NCBI GenBank assembly: GCA_031254035.1
Contig: JAIRVF010000026.1
Coordinates: forward strand, 1-55,754
Origin: Paenibacillus sp.
GTDB lineage: Bacteria; Bacillota; Bacilli; Paenibacillales; Paenibacillaceae
Length of the DNA stretch: 55,754 bases
Direction: 5' to 3'
A model generated the notes under the pieces. That model was not told the origin of the DNA. It ran no database searches and was given only the letters and a program-made list of their open reading frames with translations. Of this stretch, positions 5,138 through 44,567 are shown in pieces; the stretch's first letter is position 1, and every line of letters starts with the position of its first letter. Made by a program: the position numbers and the translations under genes.

Positions 5138-6223
5138 TTATTTGGCCACAATGTACCCTTCCGCTTTCAGCAATTCAGCGATCAGAACGGCACCTCCTGC
5201 TGCCCCACGCAATGTGTTATGCGACAGTCCCACGAATTTATAATCGTATATGGAATCCTCGCGCAATCTACCTACCGAAACACCCATGCCGCGTTCAATG
5301 TCACGGTCCAGATTCGTCTGCGGTCTGTTTTCTTCTTCAAAATACGTAATGAACTGCTTCGGCGCGCTTGGCAGACCCAGTTCCTGCGGACGTCCTTGGA
5401 ATTGACGCCAGCGCTCAATGATTTCTTCTTTCGAAGGTTTGTTCTCAAACGATGCGAATACGGTAGCCAAATGGCCATCTGTTACAGGTACGCGAATACA
5501 CTGTGTCGTAATCAACGGCGAGCTGGCTTTAATAATTTCACCGTTGGAAATACTGCCCCAAATGCGCAGCGGCTCCTGCTCGCTTTTTTCTTCTTCGCCA
5601 CCGATATACGGGATGACGTTATCCAGCATTTCAGGCCAATCGGTAAAGTTTTTGCCGGCTCCGGAGATCGCCTGATATGTGGATGCAACCACTTTTGTCG
5701 GTTTGTAATCGAGCAATGCATGAAGTGCAGGCACATAGCTCTGAATAGAGCAGTTCGGCTTCACAGCAATAAAACCAGTCTTAGTTCCCAGTCGTTTTCT
5801 CTGTGCCTCAATCACTTCAAAGTGCTCAGGATTAATTTCCGGAATAACCATTGGAACGTCAGGCGTCCAGCGGTGGGCCGAATTGTTGGAAATAACAGGC
5901 GTGCCCGTTTTTGCATACGCCTCTTCCAAGGCTTGAATTTCATTCTTTTTCATATCAACGGCGCAAAACACGAAATCAACGCCAGCCGCAACTTCCTCTA
6001 CCTTCGCTGCATCCTGAACGATGATATTTTTCACTTTATCAGGGATTGGGCCAGACATTTTCCATCTGTTTTGGACGGATTCTTCATATGTTCTACCTGC
6101 AGATCTGCCACTGGCCGCAATGCTTACTACTTCAAACCATGGATGTTCATCCAGCAGCTGCACAAAGCGCTGCCCAACCATGCCTGTTCCTCCAATAATA
6201 CCCACTTTAAGTTTTTCTGACAT
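5138..6223 (-). CDS. asd: aspartate-semialdehyde dehydrogenase
   Basis: This cytoplasmic enzyme reduces L-aspartyl-4-phosphate to L-aspartate-4-semialdehyde with NADPH, the branch point to lysine/diaminopimelate, threonine and methionine. The N-terminal Rossmann motif GIIGGTGMVGQRF is at residues 8-20, and the active-site cysteine lies in KPNCSIQ near residue 155. The catalytic-histidine segment is RVPVTDGHLATV. At 361 residues with PNCSIQ it resembles the archaeal/fungal-type Asd, more than the classical ~345-residue form. The start ATG at 6223 has GGAG five bases upstream. It is monocistronic, between a T-box leader and a terminator. Confidence 0.93.
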   Translation of the reverse strand: MSEKLKVGIIGGTGMVGQRFVQLLDEHPWFEVVSIAASGRSAGRTYEESVQNRWKMSGPIPDKVKNIIVQDAAKVEEVAAGVDFVFCAVDMKKNEIQALEEAYAKTGTPVISNNSAHRWTPDVPMVIPEINPEHFEVIEAQRKRLGTKTGFIAVKPNCSIQSYVPALHALLDYKPTKVVASTYQAISGAGKNFTDWPEMLDNVIPYIGGEEEKSEQEPLRIWGSISNGEIIKASSPLITTQCIRVPVTDGHLATVFASFENKPSKEEIIERWRQFQGRPQELGLPSAPKQFITYFEEENRPQTNLDRDIERGMGVSVGRLREDSIYDYKFVGLSHNTLRGAAGGAVLIAELLKAEGYIVAK

Positions 6224-6387: not shown

Positions 6388-6690
6388 ATCCCACCCCCAA
6401 GACCGTAGTCTCAGGGACGAGATCTGGATTCTCGTGGTACCACCCCGGATTCGCCAGTATGTCGCCATACCAGCCTCTTCAAGTACAGCATTTCAGATGC
6501 ATATACTTTAGCTCTGTAACAGGAGCTCCTGGCACGTCATCCCCCTATTCGAAGGTTCCGATGTGCTGCTCAGAGTCTTTTTTCGATAAACGATTCTTTG
6601 CTCCTTTTCAGCGTAGGGGAGCTCTCTGGGAAAGAATGTTTTTACCTACTCTTCTCTTCATCGCATTTGATATTAATGATTATAATAATA
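6388..6690 (-). promoter_or_regulatory. T-box leader of asd, specifier reads as lysine
   Basis: The minus strand carries the conserved T-box sequence CCGGGGTGGTACCACG (6433-6448). It is followed by a 15-pair terminator stem (6388-6425, several G-U pairs) and seven T. Upstream is a Stem I with GAGAAGAGTA on the 5' side and GCTGAAAAGG near its tip. Pairing GGTAAA with TTTATC places the specifier loop at GAA-AAA-GAC (about 6576-6584). AAA is a lysine codon and AAG in the next register is too, which fits Asd's role in lysine synthesis. A tRNA-dependent antiterminator would raise asd transcription when uncharged tRNA-Lys accumulates. The T-box call is firm; the exact register is my hand folding. 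A TATAAT-like -10 lies just upstream (6679-6684). Confidence 0.85.
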
Positions 6691-40000: not shown

Positions 40001-40266
40001 ATGTGCTTTGAATTCAACTAAACAGCAGACCCTCCCCCCTTCTTGCATAAATGTCTGGAGTGTTAAGCAGATATGTATGGATGGAATAATCATGTGCACT
40101 GATGCGATTGGAGTACCCTTTCATTATCAGGAAATCATGACTCGCACATAAGGGGAAAAATACAGTTATCTCGGGGGAAATACCTCTAGAAGAGTTAGAG
40201 GATGAAGTCCGTTATGGGTCTTACGGTTATTCGGCGCTATAGGATGTCAATTCAAAATGTTCCAAG

Positions 40267-40295
40267 TTGAAAAAGAAATAAGGTTGTGGTAACAT
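40267..40295 (+). promoter_or_regulatory. promoter of the cfr-like gene leader
   Basis: TTGAAA (40267-40272), a 17-base spacer and TAACAT (40290-40295) point to transcription starting near 40302, about 480 bases before the methyltransferase start. The long leader is filled with regulatory structure. Confidence 0.55.
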
Positions 40296-40330
40296 ACGAA
40301 TAACTTTATTGAGAGGAGTTGAGGAGAATA

Positions 40331-40336
40331 ATGTAA
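40331..40336 (+). CDS. start-stop mini-ORF (ATG TAA) in the cfr leader
   Basis: GAGGAG precedes ATG by four bases, and the next codon is TAA, so a ribosome could initiate and meet a stop in its A site at once. The 5' arm of an anti-antiterminator stem starts four bases after the stop (40341). A ribosome held here would cover it. Short uORFs control some ribosome-protecting resistance genes (for example vga, vmlR). Assignment of this start-stop ORF is inference from position and Shine-Dalgarno. Confidence 0.5.
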   Translation: M

Positions 40337-40340
40337 ATAT

Positions 40341-40526
40341 TTCTTGCTTATGCCAGAGAAAATAAAACAACTGCTGTTTTATTTCTTTTAAGCAAGAAAG
40401 TTACTTATTCTTCCCACTCAATACGTATTTACATAACCAACCCATTTTAAATTATGTTCTATTGGAAGGTTTGTATCTGTTTGGGCTACAAGAAAGGTAA
40501 CTTTCTTGTAGCCCTTATTTATTTTT
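40341..40526 (+). promoter_or_regulatory. transcription attenuator of the cfr-like gene
   Basis: Three mutually exclusive stems are visible. (1) TTCTTGCTTA (40341-40350) pairs with TAAGCAAGAA (40389-40398), enclosing AAATAAAACA/TGTTTTATTT (40360-40369 with 40375-40384). (2) CAAGAAAGTTAC (40393-40404) pairs with GTAACTTTCTTG (40497-40508), an antiterminator. (3) GGGCTACAAGAAAG (40483-40496) pairs with CTTTCTTGTAGCCC (40501-40514), 14 perfect pairs with TTATTTATTTTT: the terminator. If stem 1 is blocked, stem 2 can form and prevents stem 3. All arms are exact complements. Confidence 0.85.
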
Positions 40527-40558
40527 ATCACTTACTTTATCTTAGGAGGTTTAAATAA

Positions 40559-40669
40559 ATGTTTGAAGTTGTAAATGTTCATGTGAATCGTTCATTGTCC
40601 GTTAGCACGGTTCACGATCAAACTAAACGGATGCCGGGGCATTATCCATCTATCGATAGATGCACGTAG
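40559..40669 (+). CDS. 36-residue leader peptide upstream of the cfr-like gene
   Basis: AGGAGG (40544-40549) lies nine bases before ATG. The product begins MFEVVNVHVNRSLSVSTVHD and ends in RCT. The stretch STVHDQTK recalls STVHYQPN of the ErmC leader peptide, and the DNA AGCACGGTTCA is similar too. The ORF contains the hairpin GTGAATCG / CGGTTCAC (40583-40590 with 40608-40615) and the palindrome CATCTATCGATAGATG (40648-40663). It lies after the terminator, so it is made only on read-through, and it likely acts in translational attenuation. Confidence 0.7.
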   Translation: MFEVVNVHVNRSLSVSTVHDQTKRMPGHYPSIDRCT

Positions 40670-40752
40670 CGACTCTAGCTACAAGCTTCGTGAGTTTACT
40701 CTAAGTTGGTTAATGCAAATGTTAGAGCACCAAAAAGGGTGCTTATGGCATT

Positions 40753-40771
40753 TCCTCTGGCTTAAGAGGAG
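40753..40771 (+). promoter_or_regulatory. hairpin sequestering the cfr Shine-Dalgarno
   Basis: TCCTCT (40753-40758) pairs with AGAGGA (40765-40770) over a six-base loop. The right arm is the Shine-Dalgarno AGAGGAG used by the ATG at 40779. This is the expected layout for erm-type translational attenuation, in which a stalled leader ribosome refolds the mRNA and frees the site. Confidence 0.65.
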
Positions 40772-40778
40772 AAAAAAC

Positions 40779-41813
40779 ATGAAATCAACTTCGAAATTCG
40801 AAATAATTCAACACTTATTGTCGGATTTAAAACAACCATCATATCGGTTCCAACAAATCGCAGACGCGATCTTCAAGCAAAGAATAGGTGAATATGACCG
40901 AATGACCATACTCCCCAAAGCTTTAAGAAGAGAATTGATAAAACAACTAGGCGAACACGTTTTGAACTTAACCCCTGTCATGCAAAAAACATCTAATCAA
41001 GTAAATAAAGTGCTTTTTGCCATTGAGGGCGGTGAGCATGTAGAAGCAGTCCAACTAAGCTATGAGCGCGGATGGAAATCATACTGCATTTCAAGCCAAT
41101 GCGGATGTGGATACGGTTGTCGTTTCTGTGCTACAGGAACAATCGGACTAAAACGAAATCTAACAGCAGATGAAATTACCGATCAACTGTTATACTTTCA
41201 TTTAAATGGTCAGGCTTTAGACAGTGTTTCATTTATGGGCATGGGAGAGGCGTTAGCCAATCCTTATATCTTCGATACGCTTAAGATTCTAACAGATCCA
41301 CGGACCTTTGGATTGGAGCATCGAAGAATTACAGTTTCCACCATTGGAATTTTGCCGGGAATCGATCGTTTAAGACAGGAATTTCCACAAATCAACCTTA
41401 CCTATTCACTTCACTCTCCTTTTGACGAACAGCGAAGTGAACTAATGCCGATTAATAATCGATTTCCGATTAATGATGTGTTGAACAAGTTAGACCAGCA
41501 TATTCATGGTACAGGTAGGAAAGTTTACATTGCGTATATATTACTTCGAGGGGAAAACGATTCAAATGAGCACGCTGAAGCCATTTCTACTTTACTAAAG
41601 AACCGAGGTCCTTGGGAGCATCTATATCATGTCAATTTGATTCCTTACAACTCAACCGACGTGACACGTGATAGCTTTCGTCAATCTGACAAAGAACGTG
41701 TTCAAAGGTTTACCAATATATTAAAGTCAAAGGGGATCAATGTCACTGTGAGAACTCAATTCGGAACGGACATTGATGCAGCATGCGGTCAACTCTACGG
41801 GTACAATAAATAA
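40779..41813 (+). CDS. cfr: Cfr-like 23S rRNA (adenine-C8) methyltransferase
   Basis: A 344-residue radical-SAM enzyme (Cfr has 349). The [4Fe-4S] cysteines are C110, C114 and C117 in CGCGYGCRFC; the methyl-carrying and resolving cysteines are C336 (DAACGQLYG) and C103 (SYCISSQC). Cfr-type rather than RlmN-type residues are SSQC, FMGMGEALAN and RTQFGTDIDAACG. Cfr methylates C8 of A2503 and gives resistance to phenicols, lincosamides, oxazolidinones, pleuromutilins and streptogramin A; some Bacillales homologues do and some do not. ATG 40779 is chosen for AGAGGAG seven bases upstream, although the frame opens at 40713. Activity is untested here. Confidence 0.9.
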   Translation: MKSTSKFEIIQHLLSDLKQPSYRFQQIADAIFKQRIGEYDRMTILPKALRRELIKQLGEHVLNLTPVMQKTSNQVNKVLFAIEGGEHVEAVQLSYERGWKSYCISSQCGCGYGCRFCATGTIGLKRNLTADEITDQLLYFHLNGQALDSVSFMGMGEALANPYIFDTLKILTDPRTFGLEHRRITVSTIGILPGIDRLRQEFPQINLTYSLHSPFDEQRSELMPINNRFPINDVLNKLDQHIHGTGRKVYIAYILLRGENDSNEHAEAISTLLKNRGPWEHLYHVNLIPYNSTDVTRDSFRQSDKERVQRFTNILKSKGINVTVRTQFGTDIDAACGQLYGYNK

Positions 41814-41840
41814 TTGCAGACCAAAATGGGGGAATGATTT

Positions 41841-41888
41841 ATGTGTAAGTTATTCCCCTATTATTCAAAATTAAAGAGGAGAACGTAA
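41841..41888 (+). CDS. 15-residue leader peptide, first of a tandem pair
   Basis: GGGGGAA lies six bases ahead of ATG; the product is MCKLFPYYSKLKRRT. Its stop TAA (41886-41888) is one base before the ATG of the next leader, so translation may be coupled. The Shine-Dalgarno lies in the stem GGGGAAT / ATTCCCC (41829-41835 with 41852-41858), which could also act as a weak terminator for cfr. Could be chance. Confidence 0.4.
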   Translation: MCKLFPYYSKLKRRT

Positions 41889-41889
41889 T

Positions 41890-41952
41890 ATGTCTAATCA
41901 GAATTTTACAGTAACTCATGTTCAATTCCATGCAAAGACAGATCTTTGGTGA
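41890..41952 (+). CDS. 20-residue leader peptide upstream of the small HTH gene
   Basis: AGAGGAG lies eight bases before ATG. The product is MSNQNFTVTHVQFHAKTDLW, of the size and style of macrolide/lincosamide-inducible leader peptides. Downstream pairing arms overlap its second half (see the next entry). No homologue is claimed. Confidence 0.6.
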   Translation: MSNQNFTVTHVQFHAKTDLW

Positions 41953-41996
41953 TACTTGCATGGAATAACATCATCACCAGTCATGCTGGCTTTGCA
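41926..41996 (+). promoter_or_regulatory. attenuator-like alternative stems after the 20-residue leader
   Basis: TTCCATGCAA (41926-41935) pairs exactly with TTGCATGGAA (41956-41965). The competing pair is TGCAAAG (41931-41937) with CTTTGCA (41990-41996). A ribosome stalled near HVQFHAK would cover the first arm. CCAG/CTGG (41977-41989) makes a further small hairpin. Inferred role: control of the gene at 42036. Confidence 0.5.
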
Positions 41997-42035
41997 ACTT
42001 GAGAAAATACTACATTTATTCAAGGAGTGAGCTAC

Positions 42036-42299
42036 ATGAGATATATCAACGCTAATGAAATTCTTCCAAAAGAATTGGTTGATAAATTACAAAATTTCGT
42101 ACAAGGTGAATACATTTATATTCCCGCAATAAAAGATCATCATAAAAACTGGGGAGAACTATCTGGCTTTCGAAAAGAGATTGATAGGAGAAATAATGAA
42201 ATAATAAAAGCTTATTCATCTGGCTCTTCAATACAAGAACTAGCAGAATCTTACTACCTTTCTGTTTATGCTATAAGAAAAATAATATACAGCAAATAA
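42036..42299 (+). CDS. small helix-turn-helix protein, CD3324-family-like
   Basis: An 87-residue cytoplasmic protein starting MRYINANEILPKELVDKLQN and ending in a helix-turn-helix-like segment, IQELAESYYLSVYAIRKIIY. It matches the CD3324-type (Mor-activator-like) small proteins of Firmicutes as I recall them; their target is not known to me. ATG 42036 has AAGGAG eight bases upstream; the GTG at 42027 overlaps that site. It lies between the cfr-like gene and the L4 paralogue and could regulate the island. Confidence 0.7.
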   Translation: MRYINANEILPKELVDKLQNFVQGEYIYIPAIKDHHKNWGELSGFRKEIDRRNNEIIKAYSSGSSIQELAESYYLSVYAIRKIIYSK

Positions 42300-42356
42300 A
42301 ACAGAGTCTCGATAACTATACTGGTCTGCCTCAGCAGCATTAATCAAAATCTAACA

Positions 42357-42409
42357 CCTTCAAAATGTCTCAACTGAAAAATCAGGGGGATTGATTTGAA
42401 GGTTTTTTT
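42357..42409 (+). terminator. terminator or attenuator before the L4 paralogue
   Basis: CCTTCAAA (42357-42364) pairs with TTTGAAGG (42395-42402), followed by seven T. It lies 57 bases after the small HTH gene and 170 bases before the next leader ORF. It may simply end the upstream transcript. Confidence 0.7.
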
Positions 42410-42487
42410 CATTTGCAGAAAAAAGTTGCCCAGCCATAAGTCGAAGCGCTGTAGAATATTGGATTGATTATACAAAATGATACAGAA

Positions 42488-42497
42488 CCATATGGTG
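42488..42497. promoter_or_regulatory. palindrome in the presumed L4-paralogue promoter region
   Basis: ACCATATGGT is a perfect 10-bp palindrome flanked by ATAC and GTAT. Weak promoter-like boxes occur around it (TTGATT near 42465, TATAGT near 42498) but none with good spacing. It could be an operator. Confidence 0.3.
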
Positions 42498-42579
42498 TAT
42501 AGTTAAAGCGATTCCTATCTGTTACCCTTATTTTACCTTCTACTTTTAGAAGAAATCCATACTTACGGAGGTTTCCATT

Positions 42580-42606
42580 TTGGATATTACTGTAGATATC
42601 CTATGA
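42580..42606 (+). CDS. 8-residue leader peptide upstream of the L4 paralogue
   Basis: GGAGG (42567-42571) lies eight bases before TTG; the product is MDITVDIL. It sits 128 bases before the L4 paralogue start. The Shine-Dalgarno and spacing are good, but a TTG start and such short length leave chance possible. Confidence 0.4.
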   Translation: MDITVDIL

Positions 42607-42733
42607 TTTGATTAACAATTTCTCTAATAATACAACGAGATCTTACTTTAAATCTTAATTAAAACAGGTAATGCACCCTGAAATCGATGATATTTTATAG
42701 CATCGTATAGGCTTTGAATTTGGAGGAAAAGTA

Positions 42734-43381
42734 ATGTTGAATGTAACTATTTTTAATATGGAAGGTACTCATGTTGGCGAAATGGAACTTGATAAATCCA
42801 TTTTTGGTATTGTTCCCAATGAATCAGTTATGCATGATGCAGTTGTAAATTATCGGGCAAATAAACGTAGTGGAACGCAATCAGCATTAACACGTGGTGA
42901 AGTTAGAGGTGGTGGCAGAAAACCGTATAAGCAAAATAAAATCGATAGATCTAGAGCCGGTTCGATCCGTATGCCTCATTGGCGTGGTGGAGGAGTTGTC
43001 TTTGCTCCTAAGCCTCGTGACTACAGCTACAAACTTAATAAAAAGGTTAAGCGGCTTGCTATACAATCTGCATTATCAAGCAAAGTTCAGAACAAAGAAT
43101 TTATCGTCGTTGACGAGATTAAGTTAGAAACTTACAGGACAAAGTCTATAGTGGCTATGCTTAAAGCTCTTGGTGCAGAAAAAAAAGTACTGATTGTTAT
43201 CCCTTCGATAGATAACTTTGTTTTTAAAAGTGCTAATAATATACCTGGTGTAGAAACTGCCGTAGCCAACTCTCTTAATATATACAATATTCTGAATTGT
43301 GATAAATTAATAATTGCTAAAGAAGCTATCGCAATAATTACAGAAATTCATTCCTATTGGGCTCGGCTGGTACGATTGTGA
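42734..43381 (+). CDS. rplD: ribosomal protein L4 (uL4) paralogue with altered tunnel loop
   Basis: A 215-residue protein collinear with bacterial L4: TRGEVRGGGRKP (53-64), HWRGGGVVFAPKPRDYSYKL (82-101), KVKRLAIQSALSSKV (104-118), NIPGVETAVANSLNIYNIL. It is not in the S10 operon; no ribosomal gene is near. The exit-tunnel loop, canonically QKGTGRARQGS, reads QNKIDRSRAGS (67-77): E. coli positions K63, G64, T65, G66 and A68 become N, K, I, D and S. Mutations at these sites give macrolide or oxazolidinone resistance. The last residues EIHSYWARLVRL depart from the usual end. ATG has GGAGG seven bases upstream. It likely replaces L4 in a fraction of ribosomes. Confidence 0.9.
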   Translation: MLNVTIFNMEGTHVGEMELDKSIFGIVPNESVMHDAVVNYRANKRSGTQSALTRGEVRGGGRKPYKQNKIDRSRAGSIRMPHWRGGGVVFAPKPRDYSYKLNKKVKRLAIQSALSSKVQNKEFIVVDEIKLETYRTKSIVAMLKALGAEKKVLIVIPSIDNFVFKSANNIPGVETAVANSLNIYNILNCDKLIIAKEAIAIITEIHSYWARLVRL

Positions 43382-43396
43382 CACACAAGCGCAGCT

Positions 43397-43628
43397 CTAA
43401 CGAAACTACCAATCGTTATTTGAGCAAAATAGCACCTTTCAAAATTCTAACGAAACTAGAGATCGCTATTTGGCCTAATCGAATGACAAAACGCAGGATT
43501 TCACCCTGATAACGATATGGAGTTTCGTTAGATTTGTATGTGCCTCATTTTTGCCACTATAACGCTTCCCAGTTTCGTAAGATTTGCAGCCTCATTTTTG
43601 CCACTATAACGCTTCCCAGTTTCGTTAG
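43397..43628. repeat. repeat family A, cluster 3 (five cores)
   Basis: Inverted cores lie at 43397-43419 and 43447-43469, direct cores at 43509-43531, 43559-43581 and 43606-43628. The last two are separated by a conserved ATTTGNNNNCCTCATTTTTGCC spacer, so the unit is about 47 bp long. The cluster fills the gap between the L4 paralogue and the next gene. Confidence 0.85.
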
Positions 43629-43698: not shown

Positions 43699-44270
43699 TC
43701 ATTTTCTAAGCTTGTACGCGTGATATTCCCTATTTTCAATTTCGATATCGTATTGCGGCTCAAAACCACATTTTTGCAGCACTTTATTTGACGGCAGGTT
43801 ACGAGTTTGGGCGATTGCAATCAATTCCTGGACATTGGTATTCTCAAACAAATATTTAATTAGTCCTTTGGCCGCTTGAGTCGTATAGCCCTTGTTTCTA
43901 TGTTCATTTGAGATTCCGTAATAAATCTCCCTGTTTGGCGGTGACACTTTATCCAGTATTCCCGTACCGCAAACACCGATAAATTCCCCGCTATCTTTGG
44001 ATATGATACCAAGCCGCAAACGCTCTTCACCAATATTCCCATCTTTCGCAGCAGCATCCAAGAAGCGCGATTTTGAGGTATTTCATATTCTAAGATCCAT
44101 TCTTCACGCTGCTCTCTCGATACGTTCCAATCCAACAAAAATTCATGAAAGTGCGGCTGCCACGTAAGGTGGAACAGATCGTCTAGATCTTCAAAGCGAT
44201 ACTCCCGCAAAATAATATCTTCACACTCGATCATAAACAGGTTTGAATTTTTATTTTGTAATTGACTCAT
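43699..44270 (-). pseudogene. GNAT acetyltransferase (RimJ/RimL-type), frameshifted
   Basis: The 5' frame starts at ATG 44270 (AGGAGG seven bases upstream) with MIECEDIILREYRFEDLDDL and fails near 44058 after YEIPQNRA. The other frame continues LDAAAKDGNIGEERLRLGII and holds the acetyl-CoA motif NEHRNKGYTTQAAKGLIKYL. One T appears lost in GCTTCTTGG. Joined, the product is about 190 residues, the usual size. Substrate unknown. Confidence 0.82.
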
Positions 44271-44567
44271 TGATATCCTCCTAATGTTATAGAAGGAATA
44301 CAAAGCTAGTGACATCAAATACCTACTAAAACGCAGCAAACCCCAAGGATTCGCCGCATCATGCGCTCCAGACACACTATGCATTGCATCCTTGTAATAG
44401 TAAAAGCATATTCAGATCAAACCATTACAAAGTTGCAGGCATAGGTAAGCCTCCCTCCAAATATATCCTATGGATTATAGCATAATTTTTACCGTTCTTT
44501 CAAAAACGAACTAGACACCGTTTAAGGTGAACAGCACGTTGGATATTTTGGAAGTAAGCAATTTAAG

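What the first reader, a model, noticed from the sequence alone, without database searches (positions are those of the whole stretch)
40267..43381. Candidate antibiotic-inducible ribosome-remodelling island: Cfr-like methylase + leaders + L4 paralogue
Within 3.1 kb a Cfr-like methylase (acting at A2503 in the peptidyl-transferase centre) and a stand-alone L4 with a rewritten tunnel loop lie together. Each is preceded by short leader ORFs and RNA switches, and a small HTH protein sits between. All genes are on the plus strand, against the minus-strand trend on both sides, and the DNA is AT-richer. The two proteins would change the same drug-binding region by different means: RNA methylation and protein replacement. 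I know of no described system that pairs them. The joint function is inference; the parts are seen in sequence.
Basis: partly seen in the sequence, partly recalled or inferred. Interest (0 to 1): 0.95.

Follow-up and report, generated by a model that had tools for sequence, protein, structure and literature searches.

The report
Resistance cassette with spare ribosomal protein
A 3.1-kb gene cassette shared by Paenibacillus and related bacteria couples a predicted Cfr-type ribosome methylase to a second ribosomal protein L4 whose tip is rewritten in all 22 genome copies checked, at the spot where drug-resistance mutations have been reported, so it would likely replace the normal L4 and help shield ribosomes from antibiotics.

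Summary
At 40267-43381 (+) lie a Cfr over NCBI's Cfr cut-offs, a CD3324/Mor-type HTH gene and a second L4 (L4B); the genome also has a normal L4. L4B occurs in 16 of 100 same-genus genomes, always beside Cfr. All 25 L4B genomes found by whole-genome search hold a Cfr gene (one frameshifted; two hold it elsewhere). None of 24 loci compared shares long flanking DNA with the window: a compact cassette. L4B forms one clade, closer to clostridial than to Paenibacillus L4. All 8 fixed differences from the housekeeping L4 sampled fall in residues 65-82, the tunnel-loop tip, including K68N, G69K and T70I; a review says L4 K68 helps form the pocket around A2503, Cfr's target, and lists K68Q, G69A and T70P for linezolid-resistant S. 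aureus. Leader peptides and hairpins precede Cfr and, in most loci, the HTH gene; control of L4B is less clear. An Lsa-type ABC-F fills the attenuator-cfr gap in 20 of 80 named Cfr loci, so the window is one version of a modular cassette. Expression, ribosome incorporation and resistance are untested.

The parts
40267..40295 (+). sigma-A-like promoter TTGAAA-17-TAACAT with TG before the second hexamer; left edge of DNA homology to the nearer relatives
   Evidence: the pattern TTGAAA-N-TAnnnT was found in 7 of 10 loci looked at; promoter-like sites in this region are not commoner than in shuffles (9 against mean 11.7), so conservation is the argument
40331..40336 (+). start-stop uORF ATGTAA just before attenuator segment 1
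   Evidence: sequence
40340..40514 (+). predicted transcription attenuator: segment 1 (40340-40350), segment 2 (40389-40404), terminator hairpin 3:4 (40483-40514) followed by a U-rich tract; 2:4 is an alternative antiterminator pairing
   Evidence: 14-bp terminator kept in 14 of 14 aligned sequences; 2:4 duplex -6.2 to -16.3 kcal/mol in 14 of 14; 1:2 in the 12 of 14 that include segment 1
40559..40669 (+). cfr leader peptide ORF MFEVVNVHVNRSLSVSTVHDQTKRMPGHYPSIDRCT
   Evidence: an ORF of this type in 28 of 28 loci and 24 of 24 (overlapping sets; the other named Cfr loci were not examined); gaps inside it are multiples of three
40751..40774 (+). hairpin that sequesters the cfr Shine-Dalgarno sequence
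   Evidence: SD pairing probability 0.5 or more in 24 of 24
40779..41813 (+). Cfr-family 23S rRNA A2503-C8 methyltransferase, 344 aa
   Evidence: purifying selection, median dN/dS 0.079
41890..41952 (+). leader peptide ORF before the HTH gene, MSNQNFTVTHVQFHAKTDLW
   Evidence: 19 of 19 aligned loci; L101, L151 and L154 of the 23 loci have only 14-58 bases between cfr and HTH and lack it
41926..42032 (+). leader hairpin (arms 41926-41936 and 41955-41965) and SD-sequestering hairpin (41988-42032) of the HTH gene
42036..42299 (+). CD3324-family (Mor-like) small HTH protein, predicted regulator
   Evidence: median dN/dS 0.18
42355..42409 (+). hairpin plus T-run after the HTH gene, terminator-like; conservation not tested; not listed by the terminator scan
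   Evidence: sequence
42469..42531 (+). conserved promoter-like or operator-like block upstream of L4B; dyad weak (4 to 8 of 9 arm positions in the loci scored)
42580..42606 (+). short L4B leader ORF MDITVDIL (TTG start); relatives read MDAIVNI...
   Evidence: found in 11 of 12 by the script pattern (L083, the twelfth, begins ATG-AATGCTATTGTAAATATA in the alignment); by eye absent in L037 and L101
42734..43381 (+). L4B, second uL4 of clostridial type, 215 aa (about 8 residues longer at its C-terminus than relatives)
   Evidence: median dN/dS 0.123
42926..42979 (+). rewritten tunnel-loop tip, residues 65-82: W65Y K68N G69K T70I G71D A73S Q75A Q82H

Best explanation
This is a 3.1-kb promoter-to-stop cassette whose conserved leader ORFs and RNA hairpins are predicted to switch on, when a drug stalls ribosomes, a Cfr-type methylase that would methylate A2503, a small HTH protein that likely activates the last gene, and a clostridial-type L4 (L4B) that likely replaces housekeeping L4 in new 50S subunits and would reshape the A2503 pocket and tunnel wall. 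Shown by sequence: family membership of the three genes, the leaders and hairpins, the cassette edges, association with Cfr, purifying selection, the foreign affinity of L4B, and concentration of its fixed changes at the loop tip. Taken from papers: L4 K68 helps form the pocket around A2503, and changes at 68-70 are listed or discussed for linezolid or macrolide resistance. Inferred: drug induction, activation by the HTH protein, incorporation of L4B, and that methylation plus the new tip gives wider or stronger protection against peptidyl-transferase-centre and tunnel drugs than either alone.
For: Association: L4B in 16 of 100 same-genus genomes, all 16 beside Cfr; Cfr over cut-off in 27 of 100 plus one frameshifted; 16 of 28 Cfr genomes against 0 of 72 others, Fisher p 2e-11, genomes not independent. 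Nine further L4B genomes all have Cfr over cut-off, two of them not adjacent; those two keep cfr-leader or attenuator remnants upstream of HTH-L4B. Tip: 8 fixed differences between 54 L4B and two housekeeping sets (117 and 14), all 8 in residues 65-82, p 6e-10. The 54 were picked by a tip motif, but with the loop columns removed exactly these rows form one clade, and 22 of 22 L4B genes picked by locus, not by motif, have the tip. Link to A2503: PMC11700844 (passages). Regulation. Selection. Cassette: the window shares long flanks with 0 of 24 loci and 13 of 231 genome pairs share 300 bp or more of flank. B. reuszeri carries L4B (85%) with a Cfr of another lineage (76%), which suggests that the pair was formed again by recombination.
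Against: No expression, ribosome or MIC data. Of the 80 named Cfr loci 62 have no L4B (some cut by contig ends), so Cfr does not need it. L4B is broken or partial in 4 of 25 genomes, G012's lacks homology to the first 17 residues, and 4 of 80 named loci have a remnant, so it is often lost. SD sequestration for L4B is seen in only 7 of 12, and the proposed operator dyad is weak. G69A and T70P are listed together with a G2576 rRNA change, and in the erythromycin-selected S. aureus the tested cause is an L22 insertion, L4 being named only as a possible contributor. The AlphaFold model gives no confidence for most of the loop (pLDDT under 50 at 48-64, 68-71 and 75-88).
Confidence: 0.55

Rival explanations
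1. L4B is a compensator: its tip lets ribosomes whose A2503 carries Cfr's methyl group assemble or translate well, and it gives no resistance of its own.
For: L4 K68 lines the A2503 pocket (PMC11700844) and is changed in 54 of 54 L4B; all 25 L4B genomes have a Cfr gene.
Against: 62 of 80 named Cfr loci have no L4B; the changed residues include the listed positions 68-70.
Confidence: 0.22
2. L4B is an independent macrolide, ketolide or oxazolidinone resistance gene that merely travels with Cfr through co-selection; there is no mechanistic interplay.
For: Changes at 69-70 appear in an erythromycin-selected S. aureus as possible contributors (PMC5995244); other Cfr loci carry an Lsa-type ABC-F (20 of 80), which looks like a resistance-gene array.
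Against: L4B was never found without Cfr in 25 genomes; where adjacency is lost Cfr is still present elsewhere.
Confidence: 0.15
3. L4B is not a working ribosomal protein: a decaying transfer or an RNA-binding regulator.
For: Broken or partial in 4 of 25 genomes.
Against: Median dN/dS 0.123 over 131 of 231 pairs; loop residues flanking the tip, K63, P64, R74, G76, S77, R79 and W83, unchanged in 54 of 54; L4 fold.
Confidence: 0.06
4. Self-resistance gene of a nearby antibiotic biosynthesis cluster, like tclQ.
For: A ribosomal-protein paralogue serves as presumed immunity in micrococcin clusters (PMC12724294).
Against: The window shares no long flank with any of 24 loci, so there is no constant neighbour; I recognised no biosynthetic core gene in the ORF list read by eye, but no search for such genes was run.
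Confidence: 0.02

Closest known systems
Cfr family (Cfr, Cfr(B), ClbA, Paenibacillus ClPa)
   Same: Same enzyme family over curated cut-offs; a Paenibacillus Cfr 95% identical to the characterised ClPa is reported for strain LC231 (PMC5155152, passages)
   Different: Here it is paired with a second L4 and an HTH gene; the main texts of PMC5155152 and PMC11047308 have 0 hits for 'ribosomal protein'
TclQ/TclT, L11 paralogues in thiopeptide clusters
   Same: A second copy of a ribosomal protein presumed to replace the native one and lower drug binding (PMC12724294, passages)
   Different: L11 and thiopeptides inside a biosynthesis cluster, one conserved substitution; here L4, a foreign clade, eight fixed tip changes, beside Cfr and with no constant neighbour outside the cassette
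Chromosomal L4 tip mutations (S. aureus K68Q, G69A, T70P; S. pneumoniae 6-bp deletion)
   Same: Same residues, or the same protein, of the tunnel loop
   Different: Mutations of the only rplD, not a separate conserved gene; L4B has none of the exact substitutions listed
Alternative ribosomal proteins under zinc limitation (L31/L36 paralogues)
   Same: A regulated paralogue (search listing and starts of abstracts only)
   Different: Other protein, other signal, no drug-site change
ErmC/Cat-type translation attenuation and Lsa-type ABC-F
   Same: Leader peptide plus SD-sequestering hairpin; Lsa-type ABC-F beside some Cfr copies. The ErmC comparison is recalled
   Different: Two stacked attenuators before cfr, and a separate leader for each gene

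Membership tests
Cfr 23S rRNA (adenine2503-C8)-methyltransferase | Score above the curated cut-offs of Cfr models and below that of RlmN | tested here: met
   TIGR04432 610.8 (550), NF000424 583.1 (530); RlmN TIGR00048 264.9 (290)
Cfr 23S rRNA (adenine2503-C8)-methyltransferase | Radical-SAM CxxxCxxC motif | tested here: met
   CGYGCRFC in the translation; Pfam Radical_SAM 57.3 bits; the role of the motif is recalled
Cfr 23S rRNA (adenine2503-C8)-methyltransferase | C8 methylation of A2503 and resistance to five drug classes | not testable with these tools
   needs mass spectrometry and MIC
Ribosomal protein uL4 family | Family score and fold of L4 | tested here: met
   Foldseek best hits are uL4 chains of 50S structures, TM 0.77 for the first; the loop itself is low-confidence
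Ribosomal protein uL4 family | Incorporated in 50S subunits | not testable with these tools
   needs ribosome mass spectrometry
Housekeeping rplD (considered, not filed) | GTG tip of the tunnel loop | tested here: not met
   0 of 54 L4B have it; 117 of 117 and 14 of 14 housekeeping rows do
Resistance by ribosomal-protein paralogue (TclQ kind) | Second copy beside a normal gene, changed at reported drug-site residues | tested here: met
   sites
Resistance by ribosomal-protein paralogue (TclQ kind) | Lies in the biosynthesis cluster of the drug | not tested
   no search for biosynthesis genes was run; no constant flank in 24 loci
Leader-peptide attenuation of resistance genes | Conserved leader ORF and SD-sequestering hairpin before cfr and HTH | tested here: met
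   ORF in 24 of 24 and 19 of 19 aligned loci; SD paired in 24 of 24 and 18 of 19; the HTH leader is missing in L101, L151 and L154
Leader-peptide attenuation of resistance genes | The same before L4B | tested here: inconclusive
   SD paired in 7 of 12
Leader-peptide attenuation of resistance genes | Drug-dependent induction | not testable with these tools
   needs RT-qPCR or reporter fusions

The most novel reading that the evidence does not exclude
A horizontally spread, drug-triggered cassette builds a second class of ribosome on demand: rRNA is methylated at A2503 while the protein wall that holds A2503 is exchanged for a foreign L4 whose tip has co-evolved with the methylated base, so that RNA modification and protein replacement act as one two-part lock on the drug site.
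Probability: 0.38. Interest if true: 0.94.

Novelty: new variant of a known kind. Interest (0 to 1): 0.85.

Why it matters
If true, Cfr has a natural partner that works on the same small part of the ribosome by a different means. It would be the first conserved, inducible L4-replacement determinant that I know of (recall; searches listed nothing like it), would turn ribosome heterogeneity into a testable resistance mechanism, and would show what evolution does to the A2503 pocket when Cfr is a long-term resident. It also offers a ready test of whether a ribosomal protein can offset a fitness cost of Cfr.

Tried and rejected
Known-RNA explanation: Rfam finds no family at gathering score in the island and only chance-level hits of eukaryotic families at E up to 1. 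Ordinary rplD duplication: rejected, the tree with L4B held to Paenibacillaceae/Brevibacillus housekeeping L4 is worse by 27.3 log units, p-AU 0.009, loop columns removed. Plasmid spread: on held plasmids L4B has 62 hits, all under 60%, and Cfr 180 at E 1e-80, all under 60% (57% for the best shown). Operator for the HTH protein: only a weak dyad upstream of L4B, not claimed. Deep relatives P0051-P0053: 0 of 291 genomes in the class of Ruminiclostridium at E 1e-78; there was no positive control in that sample, so their host stays unknown. Literature: ten searches, (listings), and passages of PMC11047308, PMC5155152, PMC5995244, PMC3212830, PMC11700844, PMC12724294, PMC12186496; the held library is open-licence only. 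Structure: the AlphaFold loop is not interpretable. Rows dropped: P0060, P0121 (internal repeat) and P0075 (fusion). In one search a filter for short or interrupted Cfr removed none (83 rows).


Full report
What is in the sequence. The three genes are real. ORF 40779-41813 passes the curated cut-offs of two Cfr models and stays under that of RlmN; the genome also has two RlmN-like relatives at 37% and 34%. ORF 42036-42299 is a CD3324-family, Mor-like HTH protein. ORF 42734-43381 is a full L4. The genome has just one other L4, 51% identical, with the normal loop KPWKQKGTGRARQG. The three genes are on the plus strand, with minus-strand genes on both sides, and the stretch is AT-richer than its flanks.

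Is the pair more than chance? In 100 same-genus genomes an L4B-like protein (best match 70-100% identical to the window's; housekeeping copies are 50-52%) occurs in 16, of which 4 are partial or broken; in G012 homology to the first 17 residues is missing. The 15 fetched neighbourhoods and the window all have Cfr just upstream on the same strand, one of them frameshifted. The Cfr model rings over its cut-off in 27 of 100 genomes. Family-wide, 19 of 394 genomes hold L4B at E 1e-66, in 6 genera (13 of these are the genus genomes, and fragments would be missed at this E-value), and an order-wide sample of 344 added three more. Of these nine genomes outside the genus, seven have Cfr adjacent; G147 and G510 do not, but both have a Cfr elsewhere, and both keep pieces of the cfr attenuator or leader before the HTH leader, so Cfr was probably deleted from an older cassette. 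Thus all 25 L4B genomes have a Cfr gene, 23 of them adjacent. A scan for named Cfr genes gave 80 loci (108 matched; the best 80 are kept): L4B full-length in 14, remnant in 4, absent in 62; a few of the 62 are cut by contig ends, for example L082 63 bases after cfr.

A cassette. DNA homology between the window and 24 loci was mapped. In 19 of 24 it begins at 40260-40315, at or just inside the promoter; in the five P. lautus/P. rhizosphaerae-type loci, which are more diverged, it begins at 40708-40854. In the 19 loci that have L4B it ends at 43327-43356, the end of L4B; in the other five it ends after cfr or HTH. Only three short hits lie outside the island, in two loci. Comparing flanks among 22 genomes, one cassette each, 13 of 231 pairs share 300 bp or more of flank and none of these pairs includes the window, so the cassette sits in many different surroundings, with some shared sites among close relatives. 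In 20 of 80 named loci an Lsa-type ABC-F (762 and 754 bits for the two copies scanned, cut-off 750) sits upstream of cfr, with fragments in 6 more. Locus L084 has all four genes. Window 40264-40525 and 40530-41813 match L084 on either side of its ABC-F, so the window's version lacks that gene at this point. The fullest form is attenuator, Lsa-type ABC-F, leader, Cfr, leader, HTH, leader, L4B.

Where L4B comes from. Its nearest non-L4B proteins in the list are housekeeping-type L4, those with names being from Oscillospirales and other Clostridia, at about 62%, against 51% for its own genome's L4. With loop columns left out, L4B is one clade (100/99), it joins the clostridial rows (99/92), and holding it with Paenibacillaceae and Brevibacillus L4 is rejected (p-AU 0.009). 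In a larger loop-free tree the 54 tip-bearing rows are one clade (100). The clostridial rows were picked as best hits, so the exact donor is not established. Selection on L4B is purifying: median dN/dS 0.123 over 131 of 231 pairs; Cfr 0.079 over 66 of 171; HTH 0.18 over 115 of 210 (only pairs with dS between 0.05 and 1.5 are counted; L042 and L148 are one genome).

The tip. The window's L4B aligns without gaps to B. subtilis L4 in the PDB, so numbering is shared. Comparing 54 L4B with 117 clostridial-type and 14 other housekeeping rows (13 Paenibacillaceae or Brevibacillus, one Ruminiclostridium), 8 sites are fixed differently (90% or more in each set) and all 8 lie in residues 65-82: W65Y, K68N, G69K, T70I, G71D, A73S, Q75A, Q82H (p 6e-10 by hypergeometric). 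The 54 were selected by a tip motif, so the count needs two controls: the loop-free tree returns exactly these rows as a clade, and 22 of 22 L4B genes chosen by locus carry the motif. Neighbours K63, P64, R74, G76, S77, R79 and W83 are unchanged in 54 of 54. Of 173 proteins retrieved by two searches that list only the best 120 each, 53 have the rewritten tip and 120 the normal one, none between. In a review of S. aureus linezolid resistance, K68 is said to contact A2059 and G2061 and to form with them a pocket around A2503; K68Q (selected in vitro) and G69A and T70P (clinical, together with G2576) are listed (PMC11700844, passages). G69A and T70P also occur in an erythromycin-selected S. aureus, where an L22 insertion is the tested cause and L4 a possible contributor (PMC5995244, passages). 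A 6-bp L4 deletion in chloramphenicol-resistant S. pneumoniae goes with linezolid non-susceptibility (PMC3212830, passages). A2503 is the base that Cfr methylates (PMC4689488, start of abstract in the listing). This is the physical link between the two genes.

Regulation. Before cfr there is first a promoter with TG before its second hexamer, then an ATGTAA start-stop uORF, then four complementary segments: 1:2 hairpin, 3:4 terminator (14 bp, kept in 14 of 14, two pairs with double-sided changes) and a 2:4 antiterminator. A ribosome parked on the uORF would cover segment 1 and free segment 2. Second, a leader peptide ORF present in 24 of 24 aligned loci and an SD-sequestering hairpin (24 of 24); RNAalifold on the whole leader did not pick this local hairpin. 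Before HTH there is a leader ORF in 19 of 19 aligned loci, an 11-bp leader hairpin and an SD hairpin (18 of 19; in L036 the SD pattern was not found); three loci of the 23 first looked at, L101, L151 and L154, lack this leader. Before L4B there is a short leader, usually beginning MD(A/I/T/E)(I/T)V(N/D)I, and a conserved promoter-like block, but SD pairing in only 7 of 12. Expression of L4B through the HTH protein is my inference; the dyad that might be its site is weak. That drugs stall ribosomes on these leaders is inferred from the known ermC and cat type (recalled).

Recombination and loss. The Cfr tree needs 10 changes of the label 'L4B or its remnant next door'; L4B sits with three Cfr lineages, including B. 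reuszeri, where Cfr belongs to another lineage (76%) while L4B is 85% identical to the window's. Broken copies suggest that it is dispensable under some conditions.

How it most likely works. Drug-stalled ribosomes open the attenuators; Cfr methylates A2503 in new 23S rRNA; the HTH protein likely raises L4B; L4B enters assembling 50S subunits and puts N-K-I-D in place of K-G-T-G where L4 touches the A2503 pocket and narrows the tunnel. The result would be ribosomes altered on both the RNA and the protein side of the drug site. All of this is inferred. The main rival is that L4B compensates for the methyl group rather than blocking drugs; only deletion mutants can decide.

Comparison and novelty. 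Cfr, Lsa-type ABC-F and leader attenuation are known kinds. A ribosomal-protein paralogue as presumed protection is known for L11 (TclQ; PMC12724294, passages). A conserved, foreign-born L4 with a fixed new tip that is tied to Cfr was not in any paper that my searches listed, and two papers on Paenibacillus resistance and Cfr homologues have no hit for 'ribosomal protein' in their main text. I file it as a new variant of a known kind.

Noticed in passing
L084:4260-5735 and 19 other named Cfr loci of 80: Lsa-type ABC-F ribosome-protection gene lies upstream of cfr, in L084 between the transcription attenuator and the cfr leader; fragments in 6 more loci.
   Followed up: partly
window 6410-6670 (-): T-box leader, 101.8 bits (gathering 93), just upstream of the minus-strand ORF 5138-6223 that reads like aspartate-semialdehyde dehydrogenase (name recalled).
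   Followed up: no
window 43699-44384 (-): A GNAT acetyltransferase spread over two overlapping reading frames, apparently frameshifted.
   Followed up: no
window 43396-43628: Cluster of direct and inverted repeats around TAACGAAACT just right of the cassette.
   Followed up: no
window 43352-43381: The window's L4B runs about 8 residues past the point where relatives end (215 against about 207 aa).
   Followed up: no
L037, cfr to L4B: P. forsythiae-type copy lacks the HTH gene, so the HTH leader runs directly into L4B.
   Followed up: no
proteins P0051-P0053: Deepest L4B branch (66-67% to the window) from metagenomes and an unnamed 1.75-Mb contig; host and gene context unknown.
   Followed up: partly
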